Below, one piece after another: positions 12,108 to 61,651 of a stretch of DNA of 64,000 nucleotides. Both the position numbers and the translations under genes were made by a program. This DNA comes from Phaeacidiphilus oryzae TH49. GTDB lineage: Bacteria > Actinomycetota > Actinomycetes > Streptomycetales > Streptomycetaceae. The notes below the pieces were generated by a model that was not told the DNA's origin, searched no databases, and saw only the letters and a list, made by a program, of their open reading frames with translations. Numbering within the stretch: the stretch's first letter is position 1; every line of letters starts with the position of its first letter. The DNA lies in assembly GCF_000744815.1 (NCBI RefSeq), contig NZ_JQMQ01000005.1, forward strand, positions 5,971,801 through 6,035,800, read 5' to 3'.

Positions 12108-12154
12108 CGCCCCGCCAGCCCAGCCTCTCCCGCCCGCACCACCCCGGAGGACCC

Positions 12155-13117
12155 GTGTCCCAGCACCAGCCCCACCGCGGCGACACCCGCGACATCGACG
12201 AGCTGCCCACCTCGGTCTGGCTCACCGCCCAGCAGGACTCCCGCACCCAACGCACCGGCCGCTACCTGCCCGCCGCCATCGCCCACCCCGGCAAGATGCT
12301 CCCCGCCATCGCCCGCCACGCCATCCGCGCCTACACCCGCCCCGGCGACGTCGTCCTCGACCCGATGTGCGGCATCGGCACCACCCTCGTCGAGGCCGCC
12401 CACCTCGGCCGCCACGGCGTCGGCATCGAACTCGAACCTCGCTGGGCCGTCCTCGCCCGCGCCAACCTCCAGCACGCCCACACTCAGGGCGCCGAGGGCG
12501 CCGGCACCGTCTACCGCGGCGACGCCCGCGACGCCGACCGCATCGTCAACCCCGAACTCCACGGCACCGCCCGCCTCCTGCTCACCTCACCCCCCTATGG
12601 CCCCTCCACCCACGGCCACGTCCGCTCCAGCCGCGACTCCGGCAACCCCGGCGTCGCCAAGTTCCACACCGACTACGGTCACACCGCCGGCAACCTCGCC
12701 GACGCCCCCACCGACGAACTCGTCGACGCCTTCACCGAGATCCTCCGCTCCAGCCTCCCCCTCCTCGCCGACGACGCGATCGTCGCCGTCACCGCCCGCC
12801 CTTGGCGCCGCCGCGGCGAACTCGTCGACCTCCCCGCCGCCGTACTCGCCGCCGGCCGCGCCGCAGGCCTCGTCCCCCTGGAGCGCTGCGTCGCCCTCCT
12901 CGCCGCCGTCCGCGACGGCGACCTCGTCGCCCGCCCCTCCTTCTTCCAGCAGAACAACGTCCGCGCGGCCCGCACCAACGGCGTCCCCCTGGCCTGCATT
13001 GCGCACGAAGATGTGCTGGTCATGGCGGTGTCGACCGATGGGTCCCACGAGCGAGCCCGGTGCTCGGAGGCGCCGCACACCCCGTTCGCTGAACGATGCC
13101 TCCGGGCATCCCGATGA
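12155..13117 (+). CDS. Site-specific DNA methyltransferase (N4-cytosine or N6-adenine, SPPY type)
   Basis: A 320-residue enzyme starting at GTG 12155 behind CGGAGGAC. Motif I, the SAM-binding loop, is DPMCGIGTTLVEAA near residue 70. The catalytic motif IV is LLTSPPYGP near residue 147, preceded by a GDARD motif. SPPY favours N4-cytosine or beta-class N6-adenine methylation of DNA. No restriction endonuclease gene is visible nearby, so it acts as an orphan methyltransferase of the element. It may protect transferred DNA from host restriction. The last ~35 residues (SHERARCSEAPHTPF onward) look unlike the family, and base composition changes at about 13,030, so the 3' end may have been altered by recombination. 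Confidence 0.82.
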   Translation: MSQHQPHRGDTRDIDELPTSVWLTAQQDSRTQRTGRYLPAAIAHPGKMLPAIARHAIRAYTRPGDVVLDPMCGIGTTLVEAAHLGRHGVGIELEPRWAVLARANLQHAHTQGAEGAGTVYRGDARDADRIVNPELHGTARLLLTSPPYGPSTHGHVRSSRDSGNPGVAKFHTDYGHTAGNLADAPTDELVDAFTEILRSSLPLLADDAIVAVTARPWRRRGELVDLPAAVLAAGRAAGLVPLERCVALLAAVRDGDLVARPSFFQQNNVRAARTNGVPLACIAHEDVLVMAVSTDGSHERARCSEAPHTPFAERCLRASR

Positions 13118-44591: not shown

Positions 44592-45638
44592 GTGAGCGGG
44601 TTGGAGAGGCCGACCGAGTCGGCCGGCGCGGGGGGCAGGGAGTCCGCGCTCGCCGTGGACGTGGTGCTGGTCGGGGCGGAGTGCCCAGACGACCGGGCGC
44701 TCGGCGGCTCGCTGGGCGCCGCGGCGGGCGCTGCCGCGCTCGGCCGCGCGCTGGCCGCGGGCCTGCTGGACAGCGGCCCCGAGCACTGCCGGATCAGCAC
44801 CGCCCTGCCGGACGGCGACGCCAACGCGCTGCACACCGCGGTCCGCGAGGGCGCCGGGCGGCCCGGGCGGCTGCTCGTCGTCTATCTCGCCGGGCAGCTG
44901 GTGGAGGACCCGCGGCGGCGGCGTCCGGTACTGGCCGTGGCCGGCTCCCGGCGGGAGGACGCCGGCCGGCTGGGGCTTCCCGTCTCCTGGGTGGCCAGCG
45001 CGATGGAGCACGGCCGGCACCCGGAGGCGCTGCTGCTGGTGGACGTCGCGGTCGGCCGTGCGGACTGGCCGCGGCTGGGGGCGGTCCCGGTGGATCTGAC
45101 GGGGGACCAGGAGGCGGGCGCGGGCGTGAGCGCGGGCGCGGGCGTGAGCGTGGGGACGGGCGCGGGAGCAGGTGCAGGCCGGGCCGTCCGTTCCGGGCAG
45201 GCCGGCGGGCGTGCCGCCGAGGCGGTGTCCCTCCAGGTCTGGGGCCGGATCGTGCGCTACGGCGGGCACGGCGGGGTGTCCCGGCTGCGCCGGGTCGCCG
45301 GGCCGGAGGGCGCCTCGCTGCACGCCGGCGGTTTCGCCCGGGACCTCGCCGTCCTCCTCAACTCCGGGCTGCCCGGCGGGGAGCCGGTGCTCGACCCGGC
45401 CGCGCTGGACGGGGCGCTCGGCTCGGCGGGCTCGCCCTCCGAGGGCGTACGCGACCTGCCCGCACCCCCGCGCAGCCGGCTGCTGCTGCGCAATCGCGCG
45501 GCCCTGCGCGGACGACTCTCGCTGGACGCCCTCCCGCCCGCGCTGCGGGCCGAGTTGACGGCTGGTCAGGGCCCGGTCAACCAGCGGGAGGCGCCCCGCC
45601 GGCCGGACCGGCGGCAGGGCCGGCGCGAGCATTCCTGA
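44592..45638 (+). CDS. Caspase-like-fold protein without catalytic residues, at the Tad locus border
   Basis: A 348-residue protein opening at GTG 44592. The core ALAVDVVLVGAECPDDRALG, RISTALPDGDANALHTAVRE, RPGRLLVVYLAGQLVEDPRR and RHPEALLLVDVAVGRADWPR follows the alternation of strands and helices seen in caspase-like peptidases. The usual GHG catalytic His motif has become AGQLVED and the catalytic Cys strand has become LLLVDVAVG. An Ala/Gly-Val repeat loop (GAGVSAGAGVSVG) lies mid-protein. It parallels the protein at 58,728, at the far end of the same gene run. Function is unknown; a non-enzymatic scaffold is inferred. There is no signal peptide. Confidence 0.55.
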   Translation: MSGLERPTESAGAGGRESALAVDVVLVGAECPDDRALGGSLGAAAGAAALGRALAAGLLDSGPEHCRISTALPDGDANALHTAVREGAGRPGRLLVVYLAGQLVEDPRRRRPVLAVAGSRREDAGRLGLPVSWVASAMEHGRHPEALLLVDVAVGRADWPRLGAVPVDLTGDQEAGAGVSAGAGVSVGTGAGAGAGRAVRSGQAGGRAAEAVSLQVWGRIVRYGGHGGVSRLRRVAGPEGASLHAGGFARDLAVLLNSGLPGGEPVLDPAALDGALGSAGSPSEGVRDLPAPPRSRLLLRNRAALRGRLSLDALPPALRAELTAGQGPVNQREAPRRPDRRQGRREHS

Positions 45639-45786
45639 ACATCCGGGAGACAGATCCGACCACTCCGGACTACATGGCTGTCGGAAGAATTTTCCCGGCA
45701 CCCTGGGACATGAGGGGGTGTGCGTCATATTCTGCAAACCCCGCAGGGTGATGTGAACAGCGGGAGTGGCGCAACGAGGGGGAGCG

Positions 45787-46395
45787 ATGCGGCGCGAGCT
45801 GTGGTCACGGCGTACAGCGCCGGCGCTTACCGTCGGCGTCCTCCTGGTGGTCCTCTGGACGCTGTCCGCATGCGCCGGCGGGGGTGGCGCGCAGACCCTC
45901 GACGGTGATCCGGTGGCCGGAACCGGCGGCGGCACCCCGGCCGCTCCGCCCAGTTCGCCGATCCCCTCCACCGGTCCGCAGGGCGCGGCCGGCGTGGAGG
46001 TGCTGCGGATCTACCGCGGTTACTGGGCCTCCGAGATCCACGCCTCCGCCACCGCCGACGCGGCCGGTTCCGGCCTCCAGACCTACGCCACCGACAAGGC
46101 CCTCAGCGACGCCCTCGCCGGCGTCGTCCGCCTCCAGCGCTCCGGTCTGGTGATGACCGGGCGCCCGATCTACCGACCGAGGGTCACCTCGGTGGACCTC
46201 CAGAGCGACCCGCACACCGCGACGCTGTGGGACTGCCTCGACGTCACCGGCTGGCACCAGGCCACCGCCAAAGGCCACCACGACGCCGACCCCGCCCAGC
46301 GGCTCACCCGCTATGTGATCACTGTCCAGGCCAGGACCGTGGGGGAGACATGGATGATCTCCGACGTCAACCGCTACACCACCCAACCGTGCTGA
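45787..46395 (+). CDS. Secreted lipoprotein at the start of the Tad operon
   Basis: A 202-residue protein with a basic N-terminus, a hydrophobic segment and the lipobox LSAC near residue 28 (VLLVVLWTLSACAGGGG), then a Pro/Ser-rich linker. The body (~75-202) contains IYRGYWASEIHASATADAAG, LVMTGRPIYRPRVTSVDLQS, HTATLWDCLDVTGWHQATAK and MISDVNRYTTQPC. It resembles small NTF2-like extracellular lipoproteins found with actinobacterial Tad loci. ATG 45787 follows GGGGGAG. Its stop overlaps the next start. Confidence 0.75.
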   Translation: MRRELWSRRTAPALTVGVLLVVLWTLSACAGGGGAQTLDGDPVAGTGGGTPAAPPSSPIPSTGPQGAAGVEVLRIYRGYWASEIHASATADAAGSGLQTYATDKALSDALAGVVRLQRSGLVMTGRPIYRPRVTSVDLQSDPHTATLWDCLDVTGWHQATAKGHHDADPAQRLTRYVITVQARTVGETWMISDVNRYTTQPC

Positions 46396-47429
46396 CGCGT
46401 TTTCGGGCACTGCGCGGCGGACTGGCCGCGCGGGCCGCCGTCACCGTGGCGGCCACTGCCGCCACCACCGCGCTGGCCTTCGCCGTGCCCTCGCCGATCG
46501 GCGCGGCGGCCTCGGCGGCCCCGGCGCGCGGCGGCGGGGGCGGGGGTGGGGGCAGCGGCTCGGTGTCGCAGTGCCAGATCGACTACGTCTGCACCGTCGC
46601 CAAGGACCCCGGTTCTCCGGGCTCGGCGAGTGGCGGCGGAGGGGGGAGCAGTGGCGGAAGCGGCGGCGGCGGGGGCATGCCGACCTGCAGCTACCAGGGG
46701 AAGACCTATGCCTGCGAGGTGCCCGGGGTAGGCGTCTTCGACTCCAGCGACGGCTGCTACTACCAGCAGGCCCAACCGCAGCCGCCCGCAGGGGACATCG
46801 CCTGGCAGGGCCACCAGCCCGGCGACGGCGCGGTGTACACCCGGACCTGCCTGGACCAGGGCGGGGGCGGCCAGATCGATGTCTGGCGGCCCAGGCCACC
46901 GGCCGTCCCGGGCGCGGTGGTCAGGGTGAACCCCGCGGACCTGGCCCGCCAGGCCCTGCAGAAGAACCCGCTGCCGGTCTCCCAGGTCGAACTGGCGCCC
47001 GCCGACAAGGCGCTGGTCGGCATGCCGATCTGGCTGTGGCTGGCCCGGCCGGCCGGGATGGCGGCCTGGCCGACCGCCGCGCGGCCGCTCGCCCTCCAGC
47101 CGGTCACCGCCGGCGGCACCACGGTGACCGTGGAGGTCTGGATCACCCAGGTGGTCTGGGACATGGGCGACGGCCACACGGTCTCCTGCAACGGGCCCGG
47201 CACGCCGTACCAGACCGGCGACTCCACGCCGGACTGCGGCTACCAGGGCTACGGGCAGCCCTCCGCGAACCAGCCCGGCCACCGCTACCCGGTGAACGCC
47301 ACCGTCCAGTGGGCGGCCCGCTGGCGGGTCACCGCCGGGGGCAACGGCGGCGGGCAGCTCGCCCTCGACCCGGTGCCGCAGCGGGCCGGCTCGATCGAGA
47401 TCGACGAACTCCAGGTCCTCAACAACTGA
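46389..47429 (+). CDS. Secreted Cys-containing protein of the Tad locus
   Basis: A 346-residue exported protein. GTG 46389 overlaps the preceding lipoprotein gene by seven bases. The signal peptide is ARAAVTVAATAATTALAFAV. A Gly/Ser-rich segment carries CQIDYVC and CSYQGKTYACEVPG, and the body has WITQVVWDMGDGHTVSCNGP and NQPGHRYPVNATVQWAARWR. Cysteines occur in pairs, suggesting disulphides. No enzyme family is recognised. The WDMGDGHT/GHRYPV pattern recalls PKD-like beta-sandwich modules. It is probably surface-exposed and associated with the pilus. Confidence 0.7.
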   Translation: MLTRFRALRGGLAARAAVTVAATAATTALAFAVPSPIGAAASAAPARGGGGGGGGSGSVSQCQIDYVCTVAKDPGSPGSASGGGGGSSGGSGGGGGMPTCSYQGKTYACEVPGVGVFDSSDGCYYQQAQPQPPAGDIAWQGHQPGDGAVYTRTCLDQGGGGQIDVWRPRPPAVPGAVVRVNPADLARQALQKNPLPVSQVELAPADKALVGMPIWLWLARPAGMAAWPTAARPLALQPVTAGGTTVTVEVWITQVVWDMGDGHTVSCNGPGTPYQTGDSTPDCGYQGYGQPSANQPGHRYPVNATVQWAARWRVTAGGNGGGQLALDPVPQRAGSIEIDELQVLNN

Positions 47430-47477
47430 CGGCTGGTCACAGCAGTGCAGCGCAGAACGAAGGGCGGCAGGAAGCGG

Positions 47478-48299
47478 ATGGTGGACAACCCGGCGAACAC
47501 CGCCTACCAGCGCGCCGCGGCGCCCCCCGGCGGGCCCGGCGGCGGCTACGGGACGCCCCTGGCCAACGGCGGCGGCCACGGCGGTGCGGGCGGCGCCGAC
47601 GGCGGCAGCGGCCCGGGCGCTGTCGCGCCACCGCGCGCCCTGCGCGGGCGGCGGCGCAGACCGGCCGTGCTGGCGCTGGCCGTCGCGCTGATCGCGGCCG
47701 GCGGCCTCGGCGGTGCCGCGCTGTACACCTCCACCGGCAAGCGGGTCGCGGTCCTCGCCCTGGCCCAGAACGTCTCCGCCGGGGAGACGATCACCAGCCA
47801 GGACCTGGCCGAGGCGCGGATCTCCCTCGACCCGGCGCTCCGGCCGCTCAGCGCCCACAGCAAGGTGGTCGGCATGCGGGCCACCACCGACCTCAAGGCC
47901 GGCACCCTCCTCACCAAGGACGACCTGAGCAATGCCCCGCTGGTCACGGCGGGGAAGCAGGTGATCGGCGTGGCCGCCAAGAACGGCCAGCTGCCGGCCC
48001 GGCGGCTCTACCCCGGCGGTTCGGTGCTGATCGTCTCCACCCCCAGCGCGGCCGGCAACAGCGGCAGCGGCGGCGGTTCGGGCAGTGGAACGGGCAGCTC
48101 CGGCTCCTCCGCCAAGTCCGGTTCTGTGCAGCCCAGTTACGCCGCCACCGTGGTCGACGTCGGCCAGCCGGACGTCAACGGCACGGTGGTGGTGGACGTC
48201 GCCGTACCGGCCACCCAGGGCCCGGCCGTCGCCGACCTGGTCGCCGGCGGCCGGTTCGCCGTGGTGATCGCCGCGCAGGGCGGGGGTGGCGGGGGATGA
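47478..48299 (+). CDS. cpaB: SAF-domain (CpaB/RcpC-like) pilus assembly protein
   Basis: A 273-residue protein with a disordered Gly/Pro-rich cytoplasmic start, one TM helix at ~73-95 (PAVLALAVALIAAGGLGGAA) and an outside SAF domain. The SAF domain reads VAVLALAQNVSAGETITSQD, VGMRATTDLKAGTLLTKDDL and VIGVAAKNGQLPARRLYPGG. SAF domains are typical of CpaB/RcpC-type Tad proteins. ATG 47478. The stop overlaps the next gene's ATG (ATGA). It is shorter than Gram-negative CpaB. Confidence 0.78.
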   Translation: MVDNPANTAYQRAAAPPGGPGGGYGTPLANGGGHGGAGGADGGSGPGAVAPPRALRGRRRRPAVLALAVALIAAGGLGGAALYTSTGKRVAVLALAQNVSAGETITSQDLAEARISLDPALRPLSAHSKVVGMRATTDLKAGTLLTKDDLSNAPLVTAGKQVIGVAAKNGQLPARRLYPGGSVLIVSTPSAAGNSGSGGGSGSGTGSSGSSAKSGSVQPSYAATVVDVGQPDVNGTVVVDVAVPATQGPAVADLVAGGRFAVVIAAQGGGGGG

Positions 48300-49507
48300 C
48301 CGTGGTCGCGATCGCCGGCGGTCCGGGCGCGCCCGGCGCCACCACCACGGCATTGGCGCTGCTGCTCGCCTGGCCGCTGGGCCCGGGGCGGCGGGTGCTG
48401 CTGGCCGAGTGCGACCCGGACGGCGGGGCCGTGCTGGCCGGTGCGCTGGAGGGCCGGGTGGAGGCCGTGTACGGGCTGCGCAACCTGGCCGTCGCCGACC
48501 GCCGGGGCCTCCTCGCCGAGACGCTGTGGAGCCAGCTCGTCGACCTGTCGCCGGACGGGGAGCAGAACCGGCTGCTGCTGCCCGGGCTCACCGATCCGGC
48601 CCAGGCGCCCGGACTGGCCTACACCTGGGAGCCGCTGGCCCGGTTGTTCCAGGACCTCCACCTCCAGGGCTGCGACGTCCTGGTCGACCTGGGCCGCTCC
48701 GGGGCGCACGGCGCCTCCTCGGTGCTGGCCCGGCGGGCGGACGTGGTGCTCACCGTCCTGCGGTCCACCCTGCGCGGGGTCAACTCGGCGCGGCCGAGGG
48801 TGAGTTCGCTGCACGCGGAGCTGGACGCGCAGGGTACAGGGGCGGACGCCCACGGCCTGCTGGTGGTGGGTGAGGGGCCGTACCCGGTGGCGGAGGTGGC
48901 GCGGCGGCTCGGCGCCCCCGCGCTGGGGCTGCTGCCGTATCTGCCGAAGCAGGCGCGGGTGCTCTCCGACGGCGGGGAGCCGGACCGGCGGTTCGTCCGA
49001 TCCGAGCTGATGCGCGCGGCGCGCTCGACGGCCGACGCGGTACGGCAGTTGACGGCCCGCCGCCGGGCCCGGCTGGGGCTGCCGGACGTGCCGCCGCAGG
49101 GCGTGGCGCAGGGCCTGCCGCAGGCCCCGCCGCCCGGGCCGGGGCAGGCGCAGGGGCCGGCGAACGGGCGGGTCCACGGCCCGGCGCAGGCCGGGCCCTA
49201 CCCCCACCCGCAGGCGGGACCGCAGCCGCAGGCGGGACCCAACCCACAGCCGGGACCGCAGCCGCAGCGGGCCCAGCAAGACCCGCGGGCCCAGGCGGGC
49301 CGACAGCAGCCCCCCGGCGTCCACCAGGCCCCGGGCGTCCCCCAGGCCCCCGGCGTCCACCAGCCGTCGGGGGCGGGCGGTCCGGGCGCGGGCGGTCCGG
49401 CGGCCGGGAGTCCGGCGGCCGGCGACCCCGCGGCGCCCCTCGCCGGGCTCGCTCCCCATCCCGCGCCGCCGCAGCCCGGCCCCGGCCATCCCCAGGTGAT
49501 CCGCTGA
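48296..49507 (+). CDS. TadZ/CpaE-like MinD-ParA-fold protein with degenerate P-loop
   Basis: A 403-residue protein. VVAIAGGPGAPGATTTALAL matches the deviant Walker A region of MinD/ParA proteins, but the signature lysines are missing (GAPGATTT). It is followed by LLAECDPDGGAVLAGALEGR, DVLVDLGRSGAHGASSVLAR and VLRSTLRGVNSARPR. The C-terminal ~130 residues are Pro/Gln/Gly-rich with short repeats (PQAGPQPQ and GVHQAPGVPQAPGVHQ). Such atypical ParA proteins (TadZ) localise Tad machines. ATGA overlap with the SAF gene; TGATG at its end. Confidence 0.75.
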   Translation: MTVVAIAGGPGAPGATTTALALLLAWPLGPGRRVLLAECDPDGGAVLAGALEGRVEAVYGLRNLAVADRRGLLAETLWSQLVDLSPDGEQNRLLLPGLTDPAQAPGLAYTWEPLARLFQDLHLQGCDVLVDLGRSGAHGASSVLARRADVVLTVLRSTLRGVNSARPRVSSLHAELDAQGTGADAHGLLVVGEGPYPVAEVARRLGAPALGLLPYLPKQARVLSDGGEPDRRFVRSELMRAARSTADAVRQLTARRRARLGLPDVPPQGVAQGLPQAPPPGPGQAQGPANGRVHGPAQAGPYPHPQAGPQPQAGPNPQPGPQPQRAQQDPRAQAGRQQPPGVHQAPGVPQAPGVHQPSGAGGPGAGGPAAGSPAAGDPAAPLAGLAPHPAPPQPGPGHPQVIR

Positions 49508-49679
49508 TGCCCAATCCGCCCCACCCGAACGCGGAGGCCGTGAACGGCTTCCACGGCGTCCCGCGGCCCCCGCCGGCGGGCCCGTCGGGACGCTCGCGCC
49601 AGGCGGCGCCTGGGGCGCCGCCGACCTGCCGCCGTCCGCACCCGCCGCACCCGCCCCGCCTGCGGTCGTCGGTACGCCC

Positions 49680-51068
49680 GTGGACCCGGCGGTGGCACGG
49701 GAGTTGAAGCGGCAGGTGGCCGCCGCCCTCCATGAGCGGGTGGCCCAGGACCCGGCCGCCGGAACCGACCAGGCCACCACCCGCCAGCGCGGCCGGGCGC
49801 TGATCGAGGAGGCGGTCGCCCGGTGGTCCGACGCCCACGCCCTGGCGCATGGCGTGCCGCCCACCCGGGAGCAGGACCGCGCCCTCGCCGAGGCGGTCTA
49901 CGACCTCCTCTTCCGGGCCGGCCGGCTCCAGCCCTACCTGGACGACCCGGAGGTGGAGAACATCCTGGTCAACGGCTGCGACCAGGTGTGGGTCGCACGG
50001 GTCGACCAACCCCTGCGCCAGGTGCCGCCGATCGCCGACAGCGACGACGAACTCATCGAGCTGCTCCAGGATCTGGCCCGCCGGCACGGCGGCGGTGAGC
50101 GCACCCTCTCCACCGCCAGCCCGATGCTCGCCCTCCGCCTGGAGGGCGGGATGCGCCTCCAGGCCCTGACCGGCGTCACCCCGCGCCCGTACGTGGCCGT
50201 CCGCCGGCACCGGGTGGCCAGCGCCACCCTCGGTGACCTGGTCCAGCTCGGCACCGTGGACCACACCCTGGCGGCCTTCCTGGCCGCCTGCATCCGGGCC
50301 CGGAAGAACGTGATGATCACCGGCACCCAGGGGGTCGGCAAGACCAGCCTGCTGCGCGCGATGGCCGGCGAGATCCCCGCCGACGAGCGGATCGGCACCC
50401 TGGAGTCGGAGTACGAGCTGTGGCTGCACACCCTCGGCCATCTGCGCCAGGTGGTGCCGATGGAGGCCCGGGAGGGCAACGGGGAACGCGTGGACGGGCG
50501 CTCCGCGGGCGAGTTGTCGATCGGTGAGCTGATCCCGGCCGCGCTGCGGATGTCGCTCTCCCGGATCATCGTCGGCGAGGTCCGCTCGGCCGAGGTGGTC
50601 CCGATGCTCCGGGTGATGACCAACGGCGAGGGCGGCTCGATGTGCACCCTCCACGCCCGCACCCCGCACATGGTCGTCGACCGGATCGCCGAACTCTGCC
50701 TGGAGTACGGCGCCCAGATGACCGACTCGCTGGCCTACCGGCTCACCGCCAACGCGCTGGACTTCATCGTCCACCTGGCGATGGTCGACGAGACCGCGAT
50801 CGGCGGGCGCCGGCACCGCTTCGTCTCGCACGTGCTGGAGGTCAGCGGCCTCGGCGAGTCCGGCCGCCCGGCGCTGAGCACCGTCTTCGGTCCCACCGCG
50901 GGCGAGCCGCGGGCGGTACCGCAGCTGCCCCCGGCCTGCCTGGACGACCTGCGGCGGGCCGGCTTCGACGCCCGGCTGCTCGAGGTCTCCCCGCACGGGA
51001 GCTGGGCGGCCCCGCTCGACCTGCGGATCCCCGGGGGCGGCGGACGTCCGGGAGGTGAGACCCGATGA
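49680..51068 (+). CDS. cpaF: CpaF/TadA-type secretion ATPase
   Basis: A 462-residue ATPase from GTG 49680 (VDPAVARELKRQVAAAL). PYLDDPEVENILVNGCDQVW and RRHGGGERTLSTASPMLALR are N-terminal family segments. Walker A is GTQGVGKTSLL near residue 217, LESEYEL and RIIVGEVRSAEVVPMLRVM form the Asp-box/Walker B, and CTLHARTPH is the His-box. It powers Flp pilus assembly. The ATG 49507, coupled to the upstream stop (TGATG), begins MPNPPHPNAEAVNGFHG in the adjacent frame. The CpaF frame is also open back to there without a start codon, so a lost base near 49,590 may hide ~58 further N-terminal residues. Confidence 0.88.
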   Translation: MDPAVARELKRQVAAALHERVAQDPAAGTDQATTRQRGRALIEEAVARWSDAHALAHGVPPTREQDRALAEAVYDLLFRAGRLQPYLDDPEVENILVNGCDQVWVARVDQPLRQVPPIADSDDELIELLQDLARRHGGGERTLSTASPMLALRLEGGMRLQALTGVTPRPYVAVRRHRVASATLGDLVQLGTVDHTLAAFLAACIRARKNVMITGTQGVGKTSLLRAMAGEIPADERIGTLESEYELWLHTLGHLRQVVPMEAREGNGERVDGRSAGELSIGELIPAALRMSLSRIIVGEVRSAEVVPMLRVMTNGEGGSMCTLHARTPHMVVDRIAELCLEYGAQMTDSLAYRLTANALDFIVHLAMVDETAIGGRRHRFVSHVLEVSGLGESGRPALSTVFGPTAGEPRAVPQLPPACLDDLRRAGFDARLLEVSPHGSWAAPLDLRIPGGGGRPGGETR

Positions 51069-52111
51069 TCGTCCCCTCCACCGACCTGCTGGCCTTCGCC
51101 CTCTGCGGCGCCGCCGTGGTGGCCGGTCTTGTCGCGCTGTGGGCGTATCTGCGCGGCAGCGAGCCGGGGACGGGCCGCGGCGGGCGGCCGGACGGCGAGC
51201 GCGGCCTGGCCGTACGCCTCCGGCGGGCCTGGTACGGGACGACCGGGACGCCGAACCCGCGGACCGTGCGGCTGCGCCGGATCCAGGTCGGGCTCTCCCT
51301 CCTCGGCGGCGCCGGCGGCTGGCTGTACACCGGCGTCCCGCTCTCCGTGCTGCTGGTCCCGGTGCTGGTCTTCGCGCTGCCCTGGCTGCTGGACTCCACC
51401 CGGTCGCAGACCGACCGGATCGAGCGGCTGGAGGCCCTGGCGGAGTGGACCCAGCGGCTGGCCGACGTCCTGCTGCTGGGGGTGGGCCTGGAGGCCGCGG
51501 TGGTCAGCAGCCGGCGTACCGCGCCCGCGGCGCTGGAGCGCGAGATCAACGACCTGGCCGGGCGCCTCCAGGCGCGCTGGGCCCCGGCCGACGCCCTGCG
51601 CGCCTTCGCCGACGCGCTGGACGACTCGACCGCGGACAAGGTGCTGGCCGCCCTGCTGCTCCGGGCCACCGACCGCGGCCCCGGCCTGGCCCGGGCGCTG
51701 GGCGACCTGGCCGAGTCGGTCCGCGAGGAGGTCCGGCAGCGCCGGGCGATCGAGGCCGACCGGGCCAAGCACCGGGCCACCGTGCGGTGGATGGTGCTGA
51801 TCATCCTGGGCGTGGTCGCCGTCGGCTCGCTCAACCACCGGTACACCGCCCCCTACGGCAGCGCGCTGGGGCAGTTGGTGCTGCTGGTGCTGGCGGCGGC
51901 GTTCTTCGCGGTGGTGCTGTGGATGCGTTCGCTGGCCGGCCAGAAGCCGGTGCCGCGCTTCCTGGAGCGGGACCGCCGGTCCCGCGCCGGGCTCCTCCCG
52001 CGGAGGCGGGCGGCGGAGCCGGACGGTGAGGGGGGTGGCGCCGGGGGCCCGTCTCCTGACGGGCTGCCGGCGCCCCTGCCCTCCGGAACCGAGGGGGTGG
52101 CCGGACGATGA
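51065..52111 (+). CDS. tadB: TadB-like Flp pilus membrane protein
   Basis: A 348-residue protein with N-terminal hydrophobic helices (LAFALCGAAVVAGLVALWAY, LLVPVLVFALPWLL) and a type II secretion F-domain: WTQRLADVLLLGVGLEAAVV, DSTADKVLAALLLRATDRGP, LARALGDLAESVREEVRQRR. C-terminal helices (VRWMVLIILGVVAVGSLN, VLLVLAAAFFAVVLWM) follow. It forms the inner-membrane platform with TadC. ATGA overlaps on both sides indicate coupled translation. Confidence 0.88.
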   Translation: MIVPSTDLLAFALCGAAVVAGLVALWAYLRGSEPGTGRGGRPDGERGLAVRLRRAWYGTTGTPNPRTVRLRRIQVGLSLLGGAGGWLYTGVPLSVLLVPVLVFALPWLLDSTRSQTDRIERLEALAEWTQRLADVLLLGVGLEAAVVSSRRTAPAALEREINDLAGRLQARWAPADALRAFADALDDSTADKVLAALLLRATDRGPGLARALGDLAESVREEVRQRRAIEADRAKHRATVRWMVLIILGVVAVGSLNHRYTAPYGSALGQLVLLVLAAAFFAVVLWMRSLAGQKPVPRFLERDRRSRAGLLPRRRAAEPDGEGGGAGGPSPDGLPAPLPSGTEGVAGR

Positions 52112-53019
52112 CCCCGCTCGCCTGGCTGATCGTGGTCGGCGCGCTGCTCGGCGGCGGACTCGCGCTGCTGGTCGCTGAGTTGCGGCCGGGGCCGCCTGAC
52201 CTCGGCGCCGCCCTGGACCGCCTGGGCGCCGGCCGCGGCAGCGGGATGGCGGTGGAACCGCCTGCCCGGCGCGCCGGCGCGGAGTCCGCCACCCCGCGGC
52301 TCGACCGGCTCGGCGGGCGGCTGCTCGACCTGCCCGGGCTGACCCTCCCGCACCGCGAACTCGCCCTCCTCGGCCGCACCCCCGCCCGGTTCATGGCGCA
52401 CAAGCTGCTCTTCGCGCTCCTCGGCCTGCTGATCCCGCCGTACCTGGTGGTCTTCGCGGCCCTGATCGGCACCGGGCTGTCGCCGGTGGTGCCGGTCATC
52501 GGATCGCTGGGGCTCGCGGCGGCGCTGTGGTTCCTCCCCGACCTGGTGGTGCGGAGCGAGGCCAAGGCCGGACGGGTGGAGTACCTCCACGGCATCGCCG
52601 CCTACCTGGAGCTGGTCGCGCTGGAGCGGGCCGCCGACTGCGGCCCGGCGGAGGCGCTGGTCCGGGCCGCCGCGGTGGGCCGCTCCGCGGTCTTCCGGCG
52701 GATCACCGATGCCCTGGACCGGGCCACACTGGCCCGGCAGGCGCCCTGGGACGGCCTGGAGGCGCTCGCCGGGGAGCTGGGCCTGACGCCGCTCCAGGAC
52801 CTCGCGGACATCATGCGGATCTCCGGTACGGACGGCGCCGCCGTCTACCGCACCCTGCGGGCCCGCGCCCGCAACCTGCGGGCGGAGCTGCTGGCCGAGG
52901 ACCTGGCCCGGGCGAACGTGGACAGCGAGCGGATGGTCGCCCCCGGCTCCGCGCTGGTCACGCTGATGACCGTGCTGATCGCCTTTCCCGCCGTCTACCA
53001 GATGTTCCGAGGGGGATGA
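52108..53019 (+). CDS. tadC: TadC-like Flp pilus membrane protein
   Basis: A 303-residue protein with an N-terminal TM, two central helices (FALLGLLIPPYLVVFAALIG and VVPVIGSLGLAAALWFLPDL) and an F-domain: IAAYLELVALERAADCGPAE, ALAGELGLTPLQDLADIMRI. The C-terminal TM is LVTLMTVLIAFPAVYQMF. It partners with TadB. It starts four bases before the tadB stop. Confidence 0.87.
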   Translation: MTPLAWLIVVGALLGGGLALLVAELRPGPPDLGAALDRLGAGRGSGMAVEPPARRAGAESATPRLDRLGGRLLDLPGLTLPHRELALLGRTPARFMAHKLLFALLGLLIPPYLVVFAALIGTGLSPVVPVIGSLGLAAALWFLPDLVVRSEAKAGRVEYLHGIAAYLELVALERAADCGPAEALVRAAAVGRSAVFRRITDALDRATLARQAPWDGLEALAGELGLTPLQDLADIMRISGTDGAAVYRTLRARARNLRAELLAEDLARANVDSERMVAPGSALVTLMTVLIAFPAVYQMFRGG

Positions 53020-53109
53020 CCGGCCCCTCGTCCGTATCCATTGATCGCTATGTCGATGAAGAGACCCCGAGCAACGCCAGGCACCCCCGAAGGAACCACA
53101 GGAGTCCCC

Positions 53110-53361
53110 ATGAGTCGGAACCTCCGATCCGCGGTCCCCAGCTCGCTGCCCGACTTCCTCCTCCCCGCCGTGATGGCCGTCCACGTGATCCGGCACCGCG
53201 CCCTCCGCGTCCAGCACGCCCGCGCGGACCGCGAGCGCGGGGCGCTCAGCATCGAACTCGCGCTGCTGGTGCTGGTGCTGATCCTCGCCGCCGGGCTGGT
53301 GGTGGCCGCGATCACCAAGCTGGTCACCTCCAAGGCGAACCAAATCGGCAACACGCCGTGA
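53110..53361 (+). CDS. flp: Flp-type prepilin
   Basis: An 83-residue protein. A basic ~50-residue leader ends at ERGALSIELALLVLVLILAA. G-ALSIE places Glu at +5 after a Gly, the prepilin-peptidase pattern, followed by a hydrophobic helix and a short tail TSKANQIGNTP. The mature pilin would be ~40 residues, as for Flp pilins. ATG 53110 has AGGAG-like bases upstream (AACCACAGGAGTCCCC). The stop overlaps the next GTG start (GTGA). No prepilin peptidase gene is in the window. Confidence 0.78.
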   Translation: MSRNLRSAVPSSLPDFLLPAVMAVHVIRHRALRVQHARADRERGALSIELALLVLVLILAAGLVVAAITKLVTSKANQIGNTP

Positions 53362-53801
53362 GGTTCCGGCCTCGCCTCCGCCTCCGCGTCCCCCGAGGGG
53401 AGGAGGGGGCGATGTCGATCAGCCTGGCCATGGTCTTCCCGGCCGTGCTGGCGCTGATCCTCCTCGTCGTCCAGGCCTGCCTGTGGTGGTACGCCCGCCA
53501 GGTGGCCCTCACCGCGGCGCGCGAGGGGAGCGAGGCCGCACGGGCGTACGGGGCGTCCACGGACGCCGGCGACGTCCAGGCGCGCAACGTCCTCGACCGG
53601 GTGGGAGGCGGGTTGACGGATCGTCAGGTGGAGATCAGCCAGATCGGCGCGGCGGCCGGCGGGGCGCCGCAGATCACCGTGACGGTGTCGGTGCGCGCGG
53701 AGTCGCTGCTGCCCTTCGTGCCCGGGCTGGCCATCGCCCAGCATGTCACCGCGCCGGTGGAGGAGTTCGTGCCGGACCCGGCGGTGGGGGCGGGCGGATG
53801 A
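53358..53801 (+). CDS. TadE-family minor pilin-like protein
   Basis: A 147-residue protein starting at GTG 53358. It has a basic N-terminus, then GEEGAMSISLAMVFPAVLAL, a TadE-like TM with VVQACLWWYARQVALTAARE, and an extracytoplasmic domain ending VTAPVEEFVPDPAVGAGG. The prepilin-like site lacks the usual Glu at +5, having a Leu there. Coupled starts on both sides. Confidence 0.85.
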   Translation: MRFRPRLRLRVPRGEEGAMSISLAMVFPAVLALILLVVQACLWWYARQVALTAAREGSEAARAYGASTDAGDVQARNVLDRVGGGLTDRQVEISQIGAAAGGAPQITVTVSVRAESLLPFVPGLAIAQHVTAPVEEFVPDPAVGAGG

Positions 53802-54241
53802 AGGGGCGGGAGGATGAGCGGGAGGACGGACGGGAGAACGGCGGGATCGCCATCGAGGCGGCCATCCTGGTGCCGGCCATCCTGCTCTTCGTGCTCCTCG
53901 CGGTCGGCGCCGGCCGGATCGAGTCGGCCGGGGGAGTGGTGGACGCCGCCGCCCGGGACGCCGCGCGCAGCGCCTCCATCGCCCGGACCGCGGCGGCCGC
54001 CCAGGCGGCGGCCGAGAACGCGGCCCGGACGACGCTCAGCCAGCAGGGCGTGGACTGCCCGGACGTGCAGCCGCAGGTGGACACCTCCGGGCTGGACGCC
54101 CAGCTCGGGCAGACCGGGTACATCACGGTCACCGTGGTCTGCACGGTGCCGCTCGGCGACCTGATGGTGCCGGGCCTGCCGGGCTCGCACACCATGAAGA
54201 GCACCTTCACCTCGGTCGTCGACGCCTACCGGGCACGCTGA
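53798..54241 (+). CDS. TadE-like minor pilin
   Basis: A 147-residue protein beginning with an acidic/basic stretch (REDEREDGRENGG). A TadE-type helix GGIAIEAAILVPAILLFVLL follows, with Glu after the Gly-Ile-Ala-Ile, a good prepilin-type pattern. The downstream segment has GGVVDAAARDAARSASIART and a CPDVQ...VVCTVPLG pair of cysteines. It lies between the TadE- and TadG-like genes. Confidence 0.85.
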   Translation: MKGREDEREDGRENGGIAIEAAILVPAILLFVLLAVGAGRIESAGGVVDAAARDAARSASIARTAAAAQAAAENAARTTLSQQGVDCPDVQPQVDTSGLDAQLGQTGYITVTVVCTVPLGDLMVPGLPGSHTMKSTFTSVVDAYRAR

Positions 54242-54257
54242 GGAGGCCGGGGAGAGG

Positions 54258-54752
54258 ATGCGGAGAACCCCACTGCGCCGGCCGTGCGACGCGCGCGGCT
54301 CGCGCGGCTCGCGCGGCTCGCGCGGACCGCGCGGACTGCGCCGGCCGGGCGGGCTGCGGGAGGAGAGCGGTGCGCTCTCGCTCTTCGTCGCGCTGAGCGC
54401 GGTCGCGCTGCTGGTGGTCATCGGGCTGGTGATCGACGGCGGCGGGCGGCTGCGGGCGCTGGAGAACGCGGACGCGGTCGCCCAGGAGGCCGCGCGTGCC
54501 GCCGGCCAGGCGATCGACCAGCAGGCGGCGCTCAAGGGCCAGGGCTTCACGGTCGACCCGGCCAAGGCGGAGGCCGCCGGACAGCAGTACCTCGCGGCCA
54601 GCAACGCCCGCGGCACCGTGGTCGCCACCGCGCGGACCGTCACGGTGGACGTCTACGGCGACTACCACACCACCATCCTGGCCCTGATCGGCCTCGGCGA
54701 CCTCACCGTCCACGGCCACGGCAGCGCCACCCTCATCGCCCGAAACGACTGA
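54258..54752 (+). CDS. TadG-like membrane protein of the pilus locus
   Basis: A 164-residue protein. A basic N-terminus (GSRGSRGSRGPRG) is encoded by 9-base repeats at 54293-54337. ESGALSLFVALSAVALLVVI forms the TM with a prepilin-like Gly-Ala-Leu-Ser. The outside part has GRLRALENADAVAQEAARAA, typical of TadG/Rv3654c-like proteins. It ends DLTVHGHGSATLIARND. ATG 54258 is 16 bases after the previous stop. Confidence 0.8.
   Translation: MRRTPLRRPCDARGSRGSRGSRGPRGLRRPGGLREESGALSLFVALSAVALLVVIGLVIDGGGRLRALENADAVAQEAARAAGQAIDQQAALKGQGFTVDPAKAEAAGQQYLAASNARGTVVATARTVTVDVYGDYHTTILALIGLGDLTVHGHGSATLIARND
54293..54337 (+). repeat. 9-base tandem repeat in the TadG-like gene
   Basis: Three exact copies of GCGCGGCTC are followed by two variants (GCGCGGACC, GCGCGGACT), encoding Ser/Arg/Gly triplets. 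Unit length keeps the frame, so slippage would change the number of basic triplets before the membrane helix. Confidence 0.85.
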
Positions 54753-54769
54753 TCCCGGAGCCGACAGCC

Positions 54770-58582
<3,813 letters not shown>

Positions 58583-58727
58583 CGGGCACGAGAACCCCAG
58601 GATGCGGAATACTGCTCGTTCGACGCAGGTGTGACAGCGCCGCAACGGGCGCGACGGACGACGGGGCGGAACGGCATGAACGGGCGTGGGACCGAGGGGC
58701 GGACGGGGCGCCGAGGGGGTACCCGCC

Positions 58728-61037
58728 GTGACTGACCTGCCGGAGACGCCCCGCGACCTGCCGTTCAGGCCGCCGGCGCCGCTGAAGGAGACTCAGGAGC
58801 TGCCCGCGCTGGACGCCTTGACGCCGCCTGGCGCCGAGGCCGCGCCGATACCGGGGGCGGCCTCGCCCCAGCCCCCCTCAAGGCCCCTCACCTTCGCCGC
58901 GCCCCAGAGCGCATGGCCCTGGGCACCCCCACCGGCGACGCCCGCGTCGTCCCCCTCCACCCCCCAGCACACCGCGCCTGCGGGCCTCCCCGCCGCCGCG
59001 CCGCAGACCCAGCCGCCCGCGCCCGCGTCGCCGCCTCCCCCTCCGATCCCGGCGTTCGCCCCGGAGCCGGTGGCTGTGCCGCAGAGCCAACCGGCTCCCG
59101 ACTCCGTGGGCGCCTTCCACGGTCAGCCGCCGGCGCCCGAGCCGCAGGCGGTGTTGCAGGGGCAGGCGTCTGTGCCCGGACCGCCGCCTCCCCCCTTGAA
59201 TCCGGCGTTCGCGCCGGAGCCGGTATCTGAGCCGCAGGGCCAGCCGGCCCCCGGTTCCGAGGGCGTGGCCTACGGTCAGCCGGCCGCGCCTGAGTCGCAG
59301 GCGGTGTTGCAGGGGCAGGCGTCCGTGCCCGGACCGCCGCCTCCACCCTTGAATCCGGCGTTCGCCCCGGAGCCGGTGGCTGTGCCGCAGGGCCAGTCGG
59401 CCCCCGGTTCCGAGGGCGTGGCCTACGGTCAGCCGGCCGCGCCTGAGTCGCAGGCGGTGTTGCAGGGGCAGGCGTCCGTGCCCGGACCGCCGCCTTCACC
59501 CTTGAATCCGGGGTTCGCGCCGGAGCCGGTGGCTGTGCCGCTGGGTCAGTCGGCCCCCGGTTCCGAGGGCGTGGCCTACGGGCAGCCGCCCGCGCCTGAG
59601 TCGCCGACGGTGTTGCACGGCCAGGCGCCCGTGCCGCCGCCTTCACCCTTGAATCCGGGGTTCGCGCCGGAGCCGGTGGCTGTGCCGCAGGGCCAGCCGG
59701 CCCCCGGTTCCGCAGGCGTGGCCTACGGGCAGCCGCCCGCGCCCGAGGCGCCGACGGCGTTGCACGGCCAACCGTCCGTGGACGGGCGGTCGTCCGCGTC
59801 CTTTGTGCCGGGGTTCGGGCCGGAGCCGGCGACGGTGTCGCAGGGGCAGGCTGAGCCTGGGGCCGGGGACGCGGCCTACGGCCGGGCGGTCGCGCCCGAG
59901 CCGCCGACTCTGGTCTACGGCCAGGCGTCCGGCCCGGTGGCGCCGGCCGGTTTCGGTGAACAGGAGTTCGGGCCGGAGCCGGCGACCGTTCCCGCTGGCC
60001 AGGCCCCCGCGCCCGCGCCCGCCTTCGCTGCCGCTGCCGCTGCCGCAGGCGACGACGCGTGGCAGCTCTCGCCCGAGATCGGCGGCCCCGCGCTGCGGGG
60101 GCGGGTTCTGGTGGTCGAAGGGGGCCACGGGCGCGGCCTCCGGCGCTACCTGCCGCGCCGGGCCGGGGGCCCGCTCAGCACCGGGCTCTCGACGCTCCTC
60201 GCCGCCATCTCGCCGCAGATACTCGTCGCCGCCGATGTGGTGGACTCTGTGCACCTGCCGAGCGCCACCGACCCGTACACGGCCCTCACCCACATCCGCG
60301 CCGCCGCGCGGCACCCGGGTCCGCTCCTCGTCCACCTCGGCGGGCACCTGGTGGTCGACCGCCGCACCGGGCGGCTCAACCTCGCGCTGCGCGACACCCG
60401 CCCGTCCGCCCTCCGCGCCGACGCGCTCCCGTGGTCCGACGTGGCCGCGCAACTGCGCTCGCGCCCGCCGGAGTGGGGCACCCTGGTGATCGCCGACCTC
60501 ACCGCCGACCCCAAGGCGATGCCGCTCCTGCGTACCGTCCCCTCGCCGCTGTCCCAGGGCATGCCGCTGTGGGGTGCGGTCAGCTCCGATCCGGACCAGG
60601 TCGGGATCTTCACCCGCGCGCTGGTCGAGGTGCTGCACACCGGACGCCCCGGCGCGGGCGCGGCCCTGACCCCGGATCAGATCCGGGGCCAGGTGCAGAG
60701 CGTCCTGCGACCCGACACCATTGTGGTCGCCGCCTACGACAACAGCGCCCAGGTCGCCTTCCGCAACTCGGCCCGCCGTACGGTCACCCCCTCCGCGCTG
60801 GCCACGGAGGCGGAGGAGGCCGCGGCCGAGCCGGCGCCCGGCACCGTCCCGCCGATGCCGTCGGCACCCCCCACCGTCCACCTCACCTCCGCGCCCGCGC
60901 CCGCGCCTGCCCCCGCCCCTGCGCCCACGTCCGCGCCGCAGCCGCCGCCGCAGCCGCAGGAGCCCGCCCCCGCCCCGCCGGCGCCGACTCGCCCCTCCCC
61001 ACCCCGGACCCGCTCGCCCGGCACCGCGATGCCGTGA
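58728..61037 (+). CDS. Pro-rich repeat protein with a C-terminal caspase-like fold lacking catalytic Cys
   Basis: A 769-residue protein from GTG 58728 (GTG 58686 also possible). The first ~430 residues are Pro/Ala/Gln-rich, with ~51-residue repeats. Residues ~445-690 form a caspase-like domain: RGRVLVVEGGHGRGLRRYLP, VDSVHLPSATDPYTALTHIR, PLLVHLGGHLVVDRRTGRLN, WGTLVIADLTADPKAMPLLR. The catalytic-His strand keeps GGH, but the Cys position (ADLTADP) has none. It pairs with the protein at 44,592 across the locus. The end (PTRPSPPRTRSPGTAMP) may be frame-shifted: the next frame continues with DPLARHRDAVIAIVSAADAG, which looks like genuine protein. Confidence 0.65.
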   Translation: MTDLPETPRDLPFRPPAPLKETQELPALDALTPPGAEAAPIPGAASPQPPSRPLTFAAPQSAWPWAPPPATPASSPSTPQHTAPAGLPAAAPQTQPPAPASPPPPPIPAFAPEPVAVPQSQPAPDSVGAFHGQPPAPEPQAVLQGQASVPGPPPPPLNPAFAPEPVSEPQGQPAPGSEGVAYGQPAAPESQAVLQGQASVPGPPPPPLNPAFAPEPVAVPQGQSAPGSEGVAYGQPAAPESQAVLQGQASVPGPPPSPLNPGFAPEPVAVPLGQSAPGSEGVAYGQPPAPESPTVLHGQAPVPPPSPLNPGFAPEPVAVPQGQPAPGSAGVAYGQPPAPEAPTALHGQPSVDGRSSASFVPGFGPEPATVSQGQAEPGAGDAAYGRAVAPEPPTLVYGQASGPVAPAGFGEQEFGPEPATVPAGQAPAPAPAFAAAAAAAGDDAWQLSPEIGGPALRGRVLVVEGGHGRGLRRYLPRRAGGPLSTGLSTLLAAISPQILVAADVVDSVHLPSATDPYTALTHIRAAARHPGPLLVHLGGHLVVDRRTGRLNLALRDTRPSALRADALPWSDVAAQLRSRPPEWGTLVIADLTADPKAMPLLRTVPSPLSQGMPLWGAVSSDPDQVGIFTRALVEVLHTGRPGAGAALTPDQIRGQVQSVLRPDTIVVAAYDNSAQVAFRNSARRTVTPSALATEAEEAAAEPAPGTVPPMPSAPPTVHLTSAPAPAPAPAPAPTSAPQPPPQPQEPAPAPPAPTRPSPPRTRSPGTAMP
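59043..59790 (+). repeat. About 4.5 tandem copies of a 153-base coding repeat
   Basis: The phrase TTGAATCCGG recurs at 59196, 59349, 59502 and 59649, with spacings of 153, 153 and 147 bases. Most of each unit is near-identical. The units encode ~51-residue Pro/Gln-rich repeats (AFAPEPVAVPQ, VAYGQPAAPESQAVL, QGQASVPGPPP). Partial, more diverged copies flank on both sides. Recent unequal recombination is the simplest origin. Confidence 0.9.
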
Positions 61038-61651
61038 TCGCGATCGTCAGCGCCGCCGATGCGGGGGAGCACCGCCGAGCGGCCGACCTCGCCGCCGAGT
61101 TGGAGACCGAGGTGGCCACCGAGCGCGGCCACGACACCCCGGCCGTGCTCCAGGTCCGCCAGGTGCGGGCGCATGTCGCGCGCCTCTCGGGGGAGCAGGC
61201 CGAGGCGGCCGGTCTCTACCGGGCGGTGGCCCTCGAACTCCTCCGGGTGCACGGCGCCGAGCACGACGAGACCCTCCAGGCCGCCGCCAACGCGGAGGCC
61301 TGCTGGCGGGCCATCGAGGACGATCCGACCGCCCGCCGGGTCGGCCGGGACATCGTCGACATGCGGCGCTCGGTGCCCGGTGAGGACGGCCGCCGCCTCC
61401 GCGCCGCCGAGCGCTACCAGGCCCGCCTCACCGGCGCGCTCCCCACCCCGGCCCTCCCTTCGGCGCCGGACCTCGCCCCAGGCCCGGACGACCTCTCGGT
61501 CTACTCAGACCCGGCCCCGGAGCGGGAGCCGCAGCCCGAGCCGACACCGCCGACCCCGACCACCGTGTCCCCCACGCCGGATGACGCCACATCAGGCGAA
61601 GACGAGGTCTCGACCAGCGCCTTCCGCAAGCCCGCCCCCGAGGACGGCTGA
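61034..61651 (+). CDS. TPR-like C-terminal protein or the frame-shifted end of the preceding protein
   Basis: A 205-residue frame starting at GTG 61034, overlapping the preceding TGA (GTGA). Content is alpha-helical: GEHRRAADLAAELETEVATE, RQVRAHVARLSGEQAEAAGL, LELLRVHGAEHDETLQAAAN, VGRDIVDMRRSVPGEDGRRL. It ends with an acidic/Pro-rich tail. The same frame is conserved-looking upstream of the GTG (TPDPLARHRDA), which argues it is really fused to the preceding protein and that one base is missing near 60,990-61,010. As a separate coupled gene it would encode a small TPR-like partner. Confidence 0.6.
   Translation: MIAIVSAADAGEHRRAADLAAELETEVATERGHDTPAVLQVRQVRAHVARLSGEQAEAAGLYRAVALELLRVHGAEHDETLQAAANAEACWRAIEDDPTARRVGRDIVDMRRSVPGEDGRRLRAAERYQARLTGALPTPALPSAPDLAPGPDDLSVYSDPAPEREPQPEPTPPTPTTVSPTPDDATSGEDEVSTSAFRKPAPEDG

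What the first reader, a model, noticed from the sequence alone, without database searches (positions are those of the whole stretch)
44592..61651. Two pseudo-caspase proteins bracket a Tad pilus locus
The proteins at 44,592 and 58,728 share a caspase-like strand/helix pattern and the linked phrases LLVVYLAGQLVEDPRR and PLLVHLGGHLVVDRRT, but both lack the catalytic Cys and the first also lacks the His. They flank and are co-directional with all Tad genes. A catalytically dead protease fold used as a pilus scaffold or sensor would be new.
Basis: partly seen in the sequence, partly recalled or inferred. Interest (0 to 1): 0.7.

Follow-up and report, generated by a model that had tools for sequence, protein, structure and literature searches.

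The report
Dead caspases in a pilus locus
A gene cluster that builds a thin surface pilus (Tad/Flp type) in Kitasatospora-like soil bacteria carries, at its two ends, two proteins with the fold of caspases but without the cutting residues; the pairing is real and conserved in dozens of species, and the proteins probably act as binding or scaffolding parts, though their job has not been tested.

Summary
The proteins at 44592-45638 (C1) and 58686-61037 (C2) are homologous caspase-fold proteins. AlphaFold2 models with pLDDT 76.5 and 88 match MALT1 and other caspases at Z 15-16, and NCBIfam's EACC1-associated caspase profile hits both at E 5e-8 and 4e-11, far below its membership cut-off. Catalytic Cys is absent in all 46 C1 and 39 C2 orthologues. 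C1 has also lost the His; every C2 keeps it, with Ser in place of Cys (Thr in the window).

C1 is the first gene of the Tad cluster in all 45 named loci. It co-occurs with the >=80%-identical TadA in 82 of 84 genomes that hold either (Streptomycetaceae sample of 297). Relatives show C2 is one protein with a C-terminal TPR-like domain; the window splits them by a frame change. A tree joins C1, C2 and a stand-alone pseudo-caspase-TPR family in one dead clade, so catalytic loss preceded recruitment to the pilus locus.

Limits: most Streptomycetaceae Tad loci lack them, so they are accessories of one Tad clade; in Kitasatospora, 2.5-17 kb of unrelated genes separate C2 from the pilus genes; function is inferred. 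Best guess: a non-proteolytic cytoplasmic scaffold or adaptor of the Tad motor.

The parts
44592..45638 (+). C1: stand-alone pseudo-caspase, 348 aa, soluble; first gene of the cluster; catalytic His replaced by Gln, Cys replaced by Ala (DVA)
45766..46395 (+). small putative lipoprotein (TLSACAGGGG lipobox-like), conserved second gene
   Evidence: no family at its cut-off
46305..47429 (+). conserved secreted-looking protein of unknown function (exact start uncertain)
47445..48299 (+). CpaB/RcpC-like SAF-domain protein
   Evidence: SAF E 2e-9; CpaB E 1.8e-4
48296..49507 (+). TadZ/CpaE-like ATPase
   Evidence: sequence MTVVAIAGGPGAPGATTTALAL; CbiA E 0.047; position conserved
49680..51068 (+). TadA/CpaF motor ATPase
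   Evidence: T2SSE E 5e-21; TIGR03819 E 3e-48
51065..52111 (+). TadB
   Evidence: T2SSF E 1e-10
52108..53019 (+). TadC
   Evidence: T2SSF E 1.4e-4
53110..53361 (+). small pilin-like protein (candidate Flp)
   Evidence: hydrophobic pilin-like segment; no family match
53358..53801 (+). TadE-like pseudopilin
   Evidence: PF07811 E 1e-9
53798..54241 (+). TadE-like pseudopilin
   Evidence: PF07811 E 1e-7
54258..54752 (+). TadE/G-like (Tad, PF13400)
   Evidence: E 0.0016
54839..58582 (+). membrane protein with LysM and C-terminal BTAD-like domain
   Evidence: LysM E 7e-8, BTAD E 3e-4; start uncertain
58686..61037 (+). C2: Pro/Gln-rich N-terminal region with repeats, then pseudo-caspase domain (about 60100-60780), then Pro/Ala linker; His kept, Cys replaced by Thr (Ser in other species)
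61034..61651 (+). TPR-like domain; in 44 of 46 scored relatives it is the C-terminal part of the same protein as the pseudo-caspase; here in another frame with a GTGA overlap
59029..59780 (+). five 153-bp (51-aa) tandem repeats in the N-terminal region of C2

Best explanation
SHOWN: C1 and C2 are two catalytically dead caspase-fold proteins that form a conserved accessory module of one clade of Tad (Flp) pilus loci in Kitasatospora, Streptacidiphilus, Peterkaempfera and the window's genus. They descend from a Streptomycetaceae pseudo-caspase family related to the EACC1-associated caspases, and the catalytic Cys was lost before the family entered the Tad locus. INFERRED: both proteins are cytoplasmic, since they have no signal or membrane segment, and they work by binding rather than cutting. 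The most likely arrangement is that C1 and C2 pair through the caspase dimer face (as c-FLIP pairs with caspase-8), that the blocked active-site groove holds a peptide of a partner, and that C2's TPR-like domain and long Pro-rich arm tether the complex to cytoplasmic Tad parts (TadZ, TadA, or the cytoplasmic tail of the LysM-BTAD protein). There they would help place, assemble or switch the pilus motor. The identity and conservation are about 95% certain; the scaffold mechanism about 40%.
For: Fold: C1 model pLDDT 76.5, best Z 16.4 (rmsd 3.2, 194 aligned) to MALT1; C2 domain pLDDT 88, Z 15.0 (rmsd 3.1, 178 aligned) to MALT1; the C2 list also holds the pseudo-caspase c-FLIP-L, 3h13, Z 14.4. Dead site: Cys column C1 V43/A3 of 46, C2 S38/T1 of 39, group B no Cys in 24; His column C1 Q43/R3, C2 H39; 27 EACC1-type caspases chosen for an intact Asp-x-Cys motif all have His at the His column. 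Linkage: C1 precedes the same ordered Tad genes in 45 of 45 named loci, as far as the contigs reach. C1 and TadA >=80% identical: 82 both, 1 and 1 alone, 213 neither; C1 to TadA 4483-5818 bp, same strand, 74 of 74 on one contig; all 75 strong C2 genomes carry this TadA, same strand in 71 of 71 on one contig. History: pseudo family one clade 100/100 against canonical caspases, C2 nested in group B 97/84, C1 separate 96/88; Tad loci with pseudo-caspases form one TadA clade, SH-aLRT 98. Architecture: pseudo-caspase and TPR-like part fused in one ORF in 44 of 46 loci; no membrane segment. The family has its own near-invariant residues not shared by canonical caspases, such as Trp127 and Pro-Leu-Trp171-173 of the C2 domain, as expected if a new binding role is under selection.
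Against: Most Streptomycetaceae Tad loci sampled lack both proteins, so the apparatus does not need them. Four Streptacidiphilus loci have a divergent C1 but no C2 at the locus, so C1 can serve without C2. Group B pseudo-caspase-TPR proteins exist away from Tad genes and on plasmids, so C2's activity may be general. In Kitasatospora, C2 lies 2.5-17 kb beyond the LysM-BTAD gene among unrelated genes. No interaction, expression or phenotype is known. Related species share these states by descent, so the co-occurrence counts are not independent events.
Confidence: 0.45

Rival explanations
1. C1 and C2 are dominant-negative or decoy partners of the cell's active EACC1-type caspases. They tie the state of the pilus, or an attack through it, to a cell-death or conflict system.
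For: The window's genome has two canonical EACC1 caspases elsewhere. Inactive caspase domains are common in related actinobacterial conflict systems, where decoy or dominant-negative roles were proposed (PMC7159879). One Kitasatospora has a canonical EACC1-like pair inserted beside C2.
Against: No EACC1 partner gene, MoxR or vWA gene in the cluster; no PADLOC match. Streptacidiphilus G002 has C1 and C2 but no canonical EACC1 caspase at E 1e-5.
Confidence: 0.15
2. C2 is only a neighbour: a vertically inherited pseudo-caspase-TPR gene of general function that happens to lie near the Tad cluster. Only C1, if either, serves the pilus.
For: C2 is nested in group B, whose members are mostly unlinked to Tad. 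Unrelated genes lie between Tad and C2 in Kitasatospora. Loci with C1 but no C2 exist.
Against: C2 is adjacent to the Tad genes in the window, Peterkaempfera and Streptacidiphilus. It is always co-directional and always in genomes with this TadA (75 of 75).
Confidence: 0.25
3. C2 is still an enzyme: the conserved His with Ser (Thr in the window) at the Cys position forms a serine-type dyad in a caspase fold.
For: His is kept in 39 of 39 and a hydroxyl residue sits at the Cys position in 39 of 39 C2 sequences.
Against: In caspases and metacaspases Cys-to-Ser changes are known to abolish cleavage (general knowledge). The canonical motif after the nucleophile is lost. Most B members lack both residues.
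Confidence: 0.06
4. The resemblance is spurious and the proteins have another alpha/beta fold.
For: No Pfam match.
Against: Profile E-values, two models and all top PDB matches agree on caspases.
Confidence: 0.02

Closest known systems
EACC1-associated caspases (NCBIfam NF047832; system 4 of PMC7159879)
   Same: Caspase fold; significant profile match (E 5e-8 and 4e-11); same bacterial group
   Different: Scores 32.7 and 42.7 against a cut-off of 140; no catalytic Cys; no EACC1 partner gene; separate clade in the tree
Pseudo-orthocaspases of cyanobacteria and alphaproteobacteria (PMC6426788)
   Same: Bacterial caspase homologues without the His-Cys dyad
   Different: Those carry Tyr and Ser at the dyad; here Gln/Val (C1) or His/Ser or Thr (C2). 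Different lineage; the abstract ties them to photosynthetic bacteria, not to Tad
c-FLIP-L protease-like domain (PDB 3h13)
   Same: A pseudo-caspase that acts by pairing; structural match Z 14.4 to C2
   Different: Animal protein with death-effector domains; similarity is of fold and possible working principle only
Tad/Flp pilus loci of Streptomycetaceae
   Same: Same core order: lipoprotein, unknown, SAF, TadZ, TadA, TadB, TadC, TadE, TadE-like, LysM-BTAD
   Different: Other clades of the locus lack the pseudo-caspases
Inactive caspase domains in VMAP conflict systems (PMC7159879)
   Same: Dead caspase domains in multicellular actinobacteria, thought to bind peptides or act as decoys
   Different: Those are effector domains with vWA/MoxR partners, absent here

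Membership tests
Caspase fold (clan CD, C14-like) | caspase alpha/beta fold | tested here: met
   Top PDB matches all caspases, paracaspases or metacaspases; Z 15.0 and 16.4
Active caspase-type peptidase | catalytic His-Cys dyad | tested here: not met
   Cys absent in all C1, C2 and B; His absent in C1
EACC1-associated caspase (NF047832) | score above curated cut-off of 140 bits | tested here: not met
   32.7 and 42.7 bits
EACC1-associated caspase (NF047832) | upstream EACC1 partner gene | tested here: not met
   5' neighbour of C1 is a divergent MaoC-like gene; 5' neighbour of C2 is the LysM-BTAD gene
Pseudo-orthocaspase | Tyr and Ser at the dyad positions | tested here: not met
   C1 Gln/Ala in the window; C2 His/Thr
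VMAP ternary conflict system | MoxR and vWA genes next to the caspase | tested here: not met
   None among the cluster's genes
Tad/Flp pilus locus | TadA ATPase with TadB and TadC | tested here: met
Tad/Flp pilus locus | TadE-type pseudopilins and CpaB-like protein | tested here: met
Tad/Flp pilus locus | Flp pilin | tested here: inconclusive
   53110-53361 is pilin-like by sequence but matches no family
Tad/Flp pilus locus | prepilin peptidase in the genome | tested here: met
   Not in the cluster; one PF01478 gene elsewhere in the genome, C5:2938431
c-FLIP-like pairing pseudo-caspase | forms a heterodimer with another caspase-fold protein | not testable with these tools
   no complex prediction or binding data

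The most novel reading that the evidence does not exclude
A pair of dead caspases forms a heteromeric, non-proteolytic cytoplasmic platform that places or switches the Tad pilus motor. It would be the first caspase-fold part of a bacterial pilus machine, and a bacterial parallel to c-FLIP-type pseudo-caspase regulation.
Probability: 0.3. Interest if true: 0.75.

Novelty: new variant of a known kind. Interest (0 to 1): 0.5.

Why it matters
Caspase-fold proteins in bacteria are discussed almost wholly as death or defence enzymes. A conserved, dead pair inside a pilus gene cluster points to a structural or regulatory use of the fold in surface organelles. It also names an unannotated pseudo-caspase-TPR family ('hypothetical protein' on Streptomyces plasmids) with a simple test bed: Kitasatospora, in which targeted gene deletion has been done (PMC9500057). 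What the Tad loci of streptomycete-like bacteria do is itself an open question; no study of them was found in the library searched.

Tried and rejected
Pfam and PADLOC gave no family for C1 or C2.

Group B neighbourhoods were clustered to find a shared partner gene. None was found beyond the TPR-like part; contexts differ by genus and include plasmids and integrative elements with conjugation genes.

The gap between the LysM-BTAD gene and C2 in Kitasatospora was examined as possible effector cargo. It holds unrelated genes on both strands; the canonical caspase found there in one genome is a single case.

dN/dS was attempted, but synonymous changes are near saturation at this G+C. Close C2 pairs give 0.17-0.24, and C1 pairs range 0.10-1.0, so this is weak support only.

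Two family-wide C2 searches failed for technical reasons and were replaced by a 200-genome search.

Literature searches found no paper linking caspases with Tad pili, nor one on Kitasatospora Tad pili. The library lacks most subscription journals.

The split of C2 and TPR in the window was considered as a natural split, a mutation or a sequencing error; it cannot be decided here.

Full report
WHAT IS IN THE WINDOW. The window is from a 7.8-Mb, high-G+C genome of the Streptomycetaceae, in a genus of which no other genome was among those searched. Genes from 44592 to 61651 all lie on the + strand, mostly with gaps under 175 bp or 4-bp overlaps, and are flanked by genes on the - strand. Inside are a CpaB-like SAF protein, a TadZ-like ATPase, TadA (T2SSE E 5e-21; TadA family E 3e-48), TadB and TadC (T2SSF), several TadE/Flp-like pilins and a membrane LysM-BTAD protein. 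The only prepilin peptidase detected is elsewhere in the genome. This is a Tad (Flp) pilus locus. Its first gene is C1 (44592-45638). Its last genes are C2 (58686-61037) and a TPR-like ORF (61034-61651).

ARE C1 AND C2 CASPASE-LIKE? Pfam finds nothing, but NCBIfam's EACC1-associated caspase profile matches both at E 5.1e-8 and 4.4e-11, well under its cut-off of 140 bits. Searches with C1 and with C2 land on the same intermediate genes. AlphaFold2 models built on family alignments are confident over the caspase core: C2 domain mean pLDDT 88, pTM 0.86; C1 76.5 and 0.74, with low-confidence loops. Foldseek's best PDB matches are all caspases, MALT1 paracaspase, metacaspases and a bacterial homologue. 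VIA-align gives Z 15.0 (rmsd 3.1, 178 residues) for C2 and Z 16.4 (rmsd 3.2, 194 residues) for C1 against MALT1; the pseudo-caspase c-FLIP-L appears at Z 14.4 for C2.

THE DEAD ACTIVE SITE. In an alignment of 141 sequences, the catalytic His and Cys columns were read from canonical EACC1-type caspases. The 27 canonical ones were chosen for an Asp-x-Cys motif, so their Cys is there by selection; their His is not. C1: 43 Gln and 3 Arg at His; 43 Val and 3 Ala at Cys (46 sequences). Divergent C1 of four Streptacidiphilus: Gln and Glu. C2: His in 39 of 39, Ser in 38 and Thr in the window at Cys. Group B (stand-alone relatives): mixed, never Cys. The Asp before the nucleophile position is kept almost everywhere. 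The family has new near-invariant residues of its own. This is a long-standing pseudo-enzyme family rather than recent decay.

CONSERVATION WITH TAD. Forty-five named loci from Kitasatospora, Streptacidiphilus, Peterkaempfera and relatives under other names all have C1 just upstream of the same ordered genes, as far as the contigs reach. Among 297 Streptomycetaceae genomes, 82 have both C1 and a TadA at least 80% identical, one has C1 alone (a short contig), one has TadA alone (the contig starts at TadA), and 213 have neither. C1 lies 4.5-5.8 kb upstream of TadA on the same strand in all 74 same-contig cases. All 75 genomes with a strong C2, in a 200-genome sample, carry this TadA; C2 lies 7.8-29 kb downstream on the same strand in all 71 same-contig cases. 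These counts share descent, so the Fisher value overstates independence.

LIMITS OF THE LINK. The same Tad core exists in other Streptomycetaceae clades (TadA 40-66% identical) with no pseudo-caspase within about 10 kb. On a TadA tree the loci with pseudo-caspases form one clade, SH-aLRT 98: an accessory gained once, not a general Tad part. Four Streptacidiphilus loci have C1 without C2, and G014 has a single member at the 3' end. In Kitasatospora, 2.5-17 kb of unrelated genes lie between LysM-BTAD and C2, while in the window, Peterkaempfera and Streptacidiphilus C2 is adjacent.

ORIGIN AND TRUE FORM OF C2. The tree puts C1, C2 and group B in one clade (100/100) apart from the canonical caspases sampled. 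C2 is nested in group B (97/84) and C1 is a separate clade (96/88). Group B proteins are mostly pseudo-caspase-linker-TPR fusions, present in many Streptomyces and relatives, some on plasmids or integrative elements, annotated 'hypothetical protein' wherever an annotation was listed. Outside the family, only weak hits (E >= 3.7e-7) appear in a class-wide sample of 296 genomes. In 44 of 46 loci where both parts were found, pseudo-caspase and TPR-like part are in one ORF, including nearly all C2. The window breaks the frame in the Pro/Ala linker near 60860-60990, so its C2 and TPR ORFs are probably one gene, either broken, naturally split (GTGA overlap) or misread. The TPR label rests on weak Pfam matches, best E 9.7e-6 in a relative. 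Thirty of 69 genomes that have only group B show no TadA at E <= 1e-60, so this protein's activity does not need Tad.

MECHANISM. Neither protein has a membrane or signal segment, so both should be cytoplasmic, where TadZ, TadA and the ends of TadB and TadC are. With no catalytic Cys, a binding role is the simplest reading. Known pseudo-caspases act by pairing or by holding partners (c-FLIP; general knowledge), and inactive caspase domains in related actinobacterial systems were proposed to be peptide-binding or dominant-negative (PMC7159879). The TPR-like part and the repeat-rich arm of C2 fit a tether. I therefore favour a cytoplasmic scaffold or adaptor for this Tad clade. Steps shown: fold, dead site, conservation, fusion, clade restriction. 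Steps inferred: location, pairing, partners, effect on the pilus.

VERDICT. No earlier report was found in the library searched. I rate it a new variant of a known kind.

Noticed in passing
L089 (G013:C12), about 10963-12949 of the reverse complement; caspase at G013:C12:362840-363505: One Kitasatospora has a canonical EACC1-type caspase with a short upstream gene inserted between the LysM-BTAD gene and C2 of its Tad locus.
   Followed up: partly
L067, L071, L308, L310 and other plasmid records: Pseudo-caspase-TPR (group B) genes are common on Streptomyces plasmids and integrative elements, some with conjugation genes nearby, annotated 'hypothetical protein' wherever an annotation was listed.
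   Followed up: partly
window 59029-59780: Five 153-bp tandem repeats encode 51-aa Pro/Gln-rich units in the N-terminal arm of C2.
   Followed up: no
window 60860-60990: Frame change in a GC-rich Pro/Ala repeat separates the pseudo-caspase from its TPR-like part; a Peterkaempfera-group genome (L083) and one Kitasatospora (L286) show the same kind of split.
   Followed up: partly
G000:C5:1068720-1069352 and 6434092-6434724 (outside the window): Two canonical EACC1-type caspases in the same genome, over the curated cut-off.
   Followed up: no
G000:C5:3815414-3816253 (outside the window): A second, stronger T2SSE-family ATPase gene (E 1e-63) elsewhere in the genome.
   Followed up: no
L063, L100, L101 upstream of the pseudo-caspase: Three genomes of one genus share four conserved genes (clusters 12-15) divergent from the group B pseudo-caspase; their look suggests a secretion or conjugation system, not tested.
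   Followed up: no
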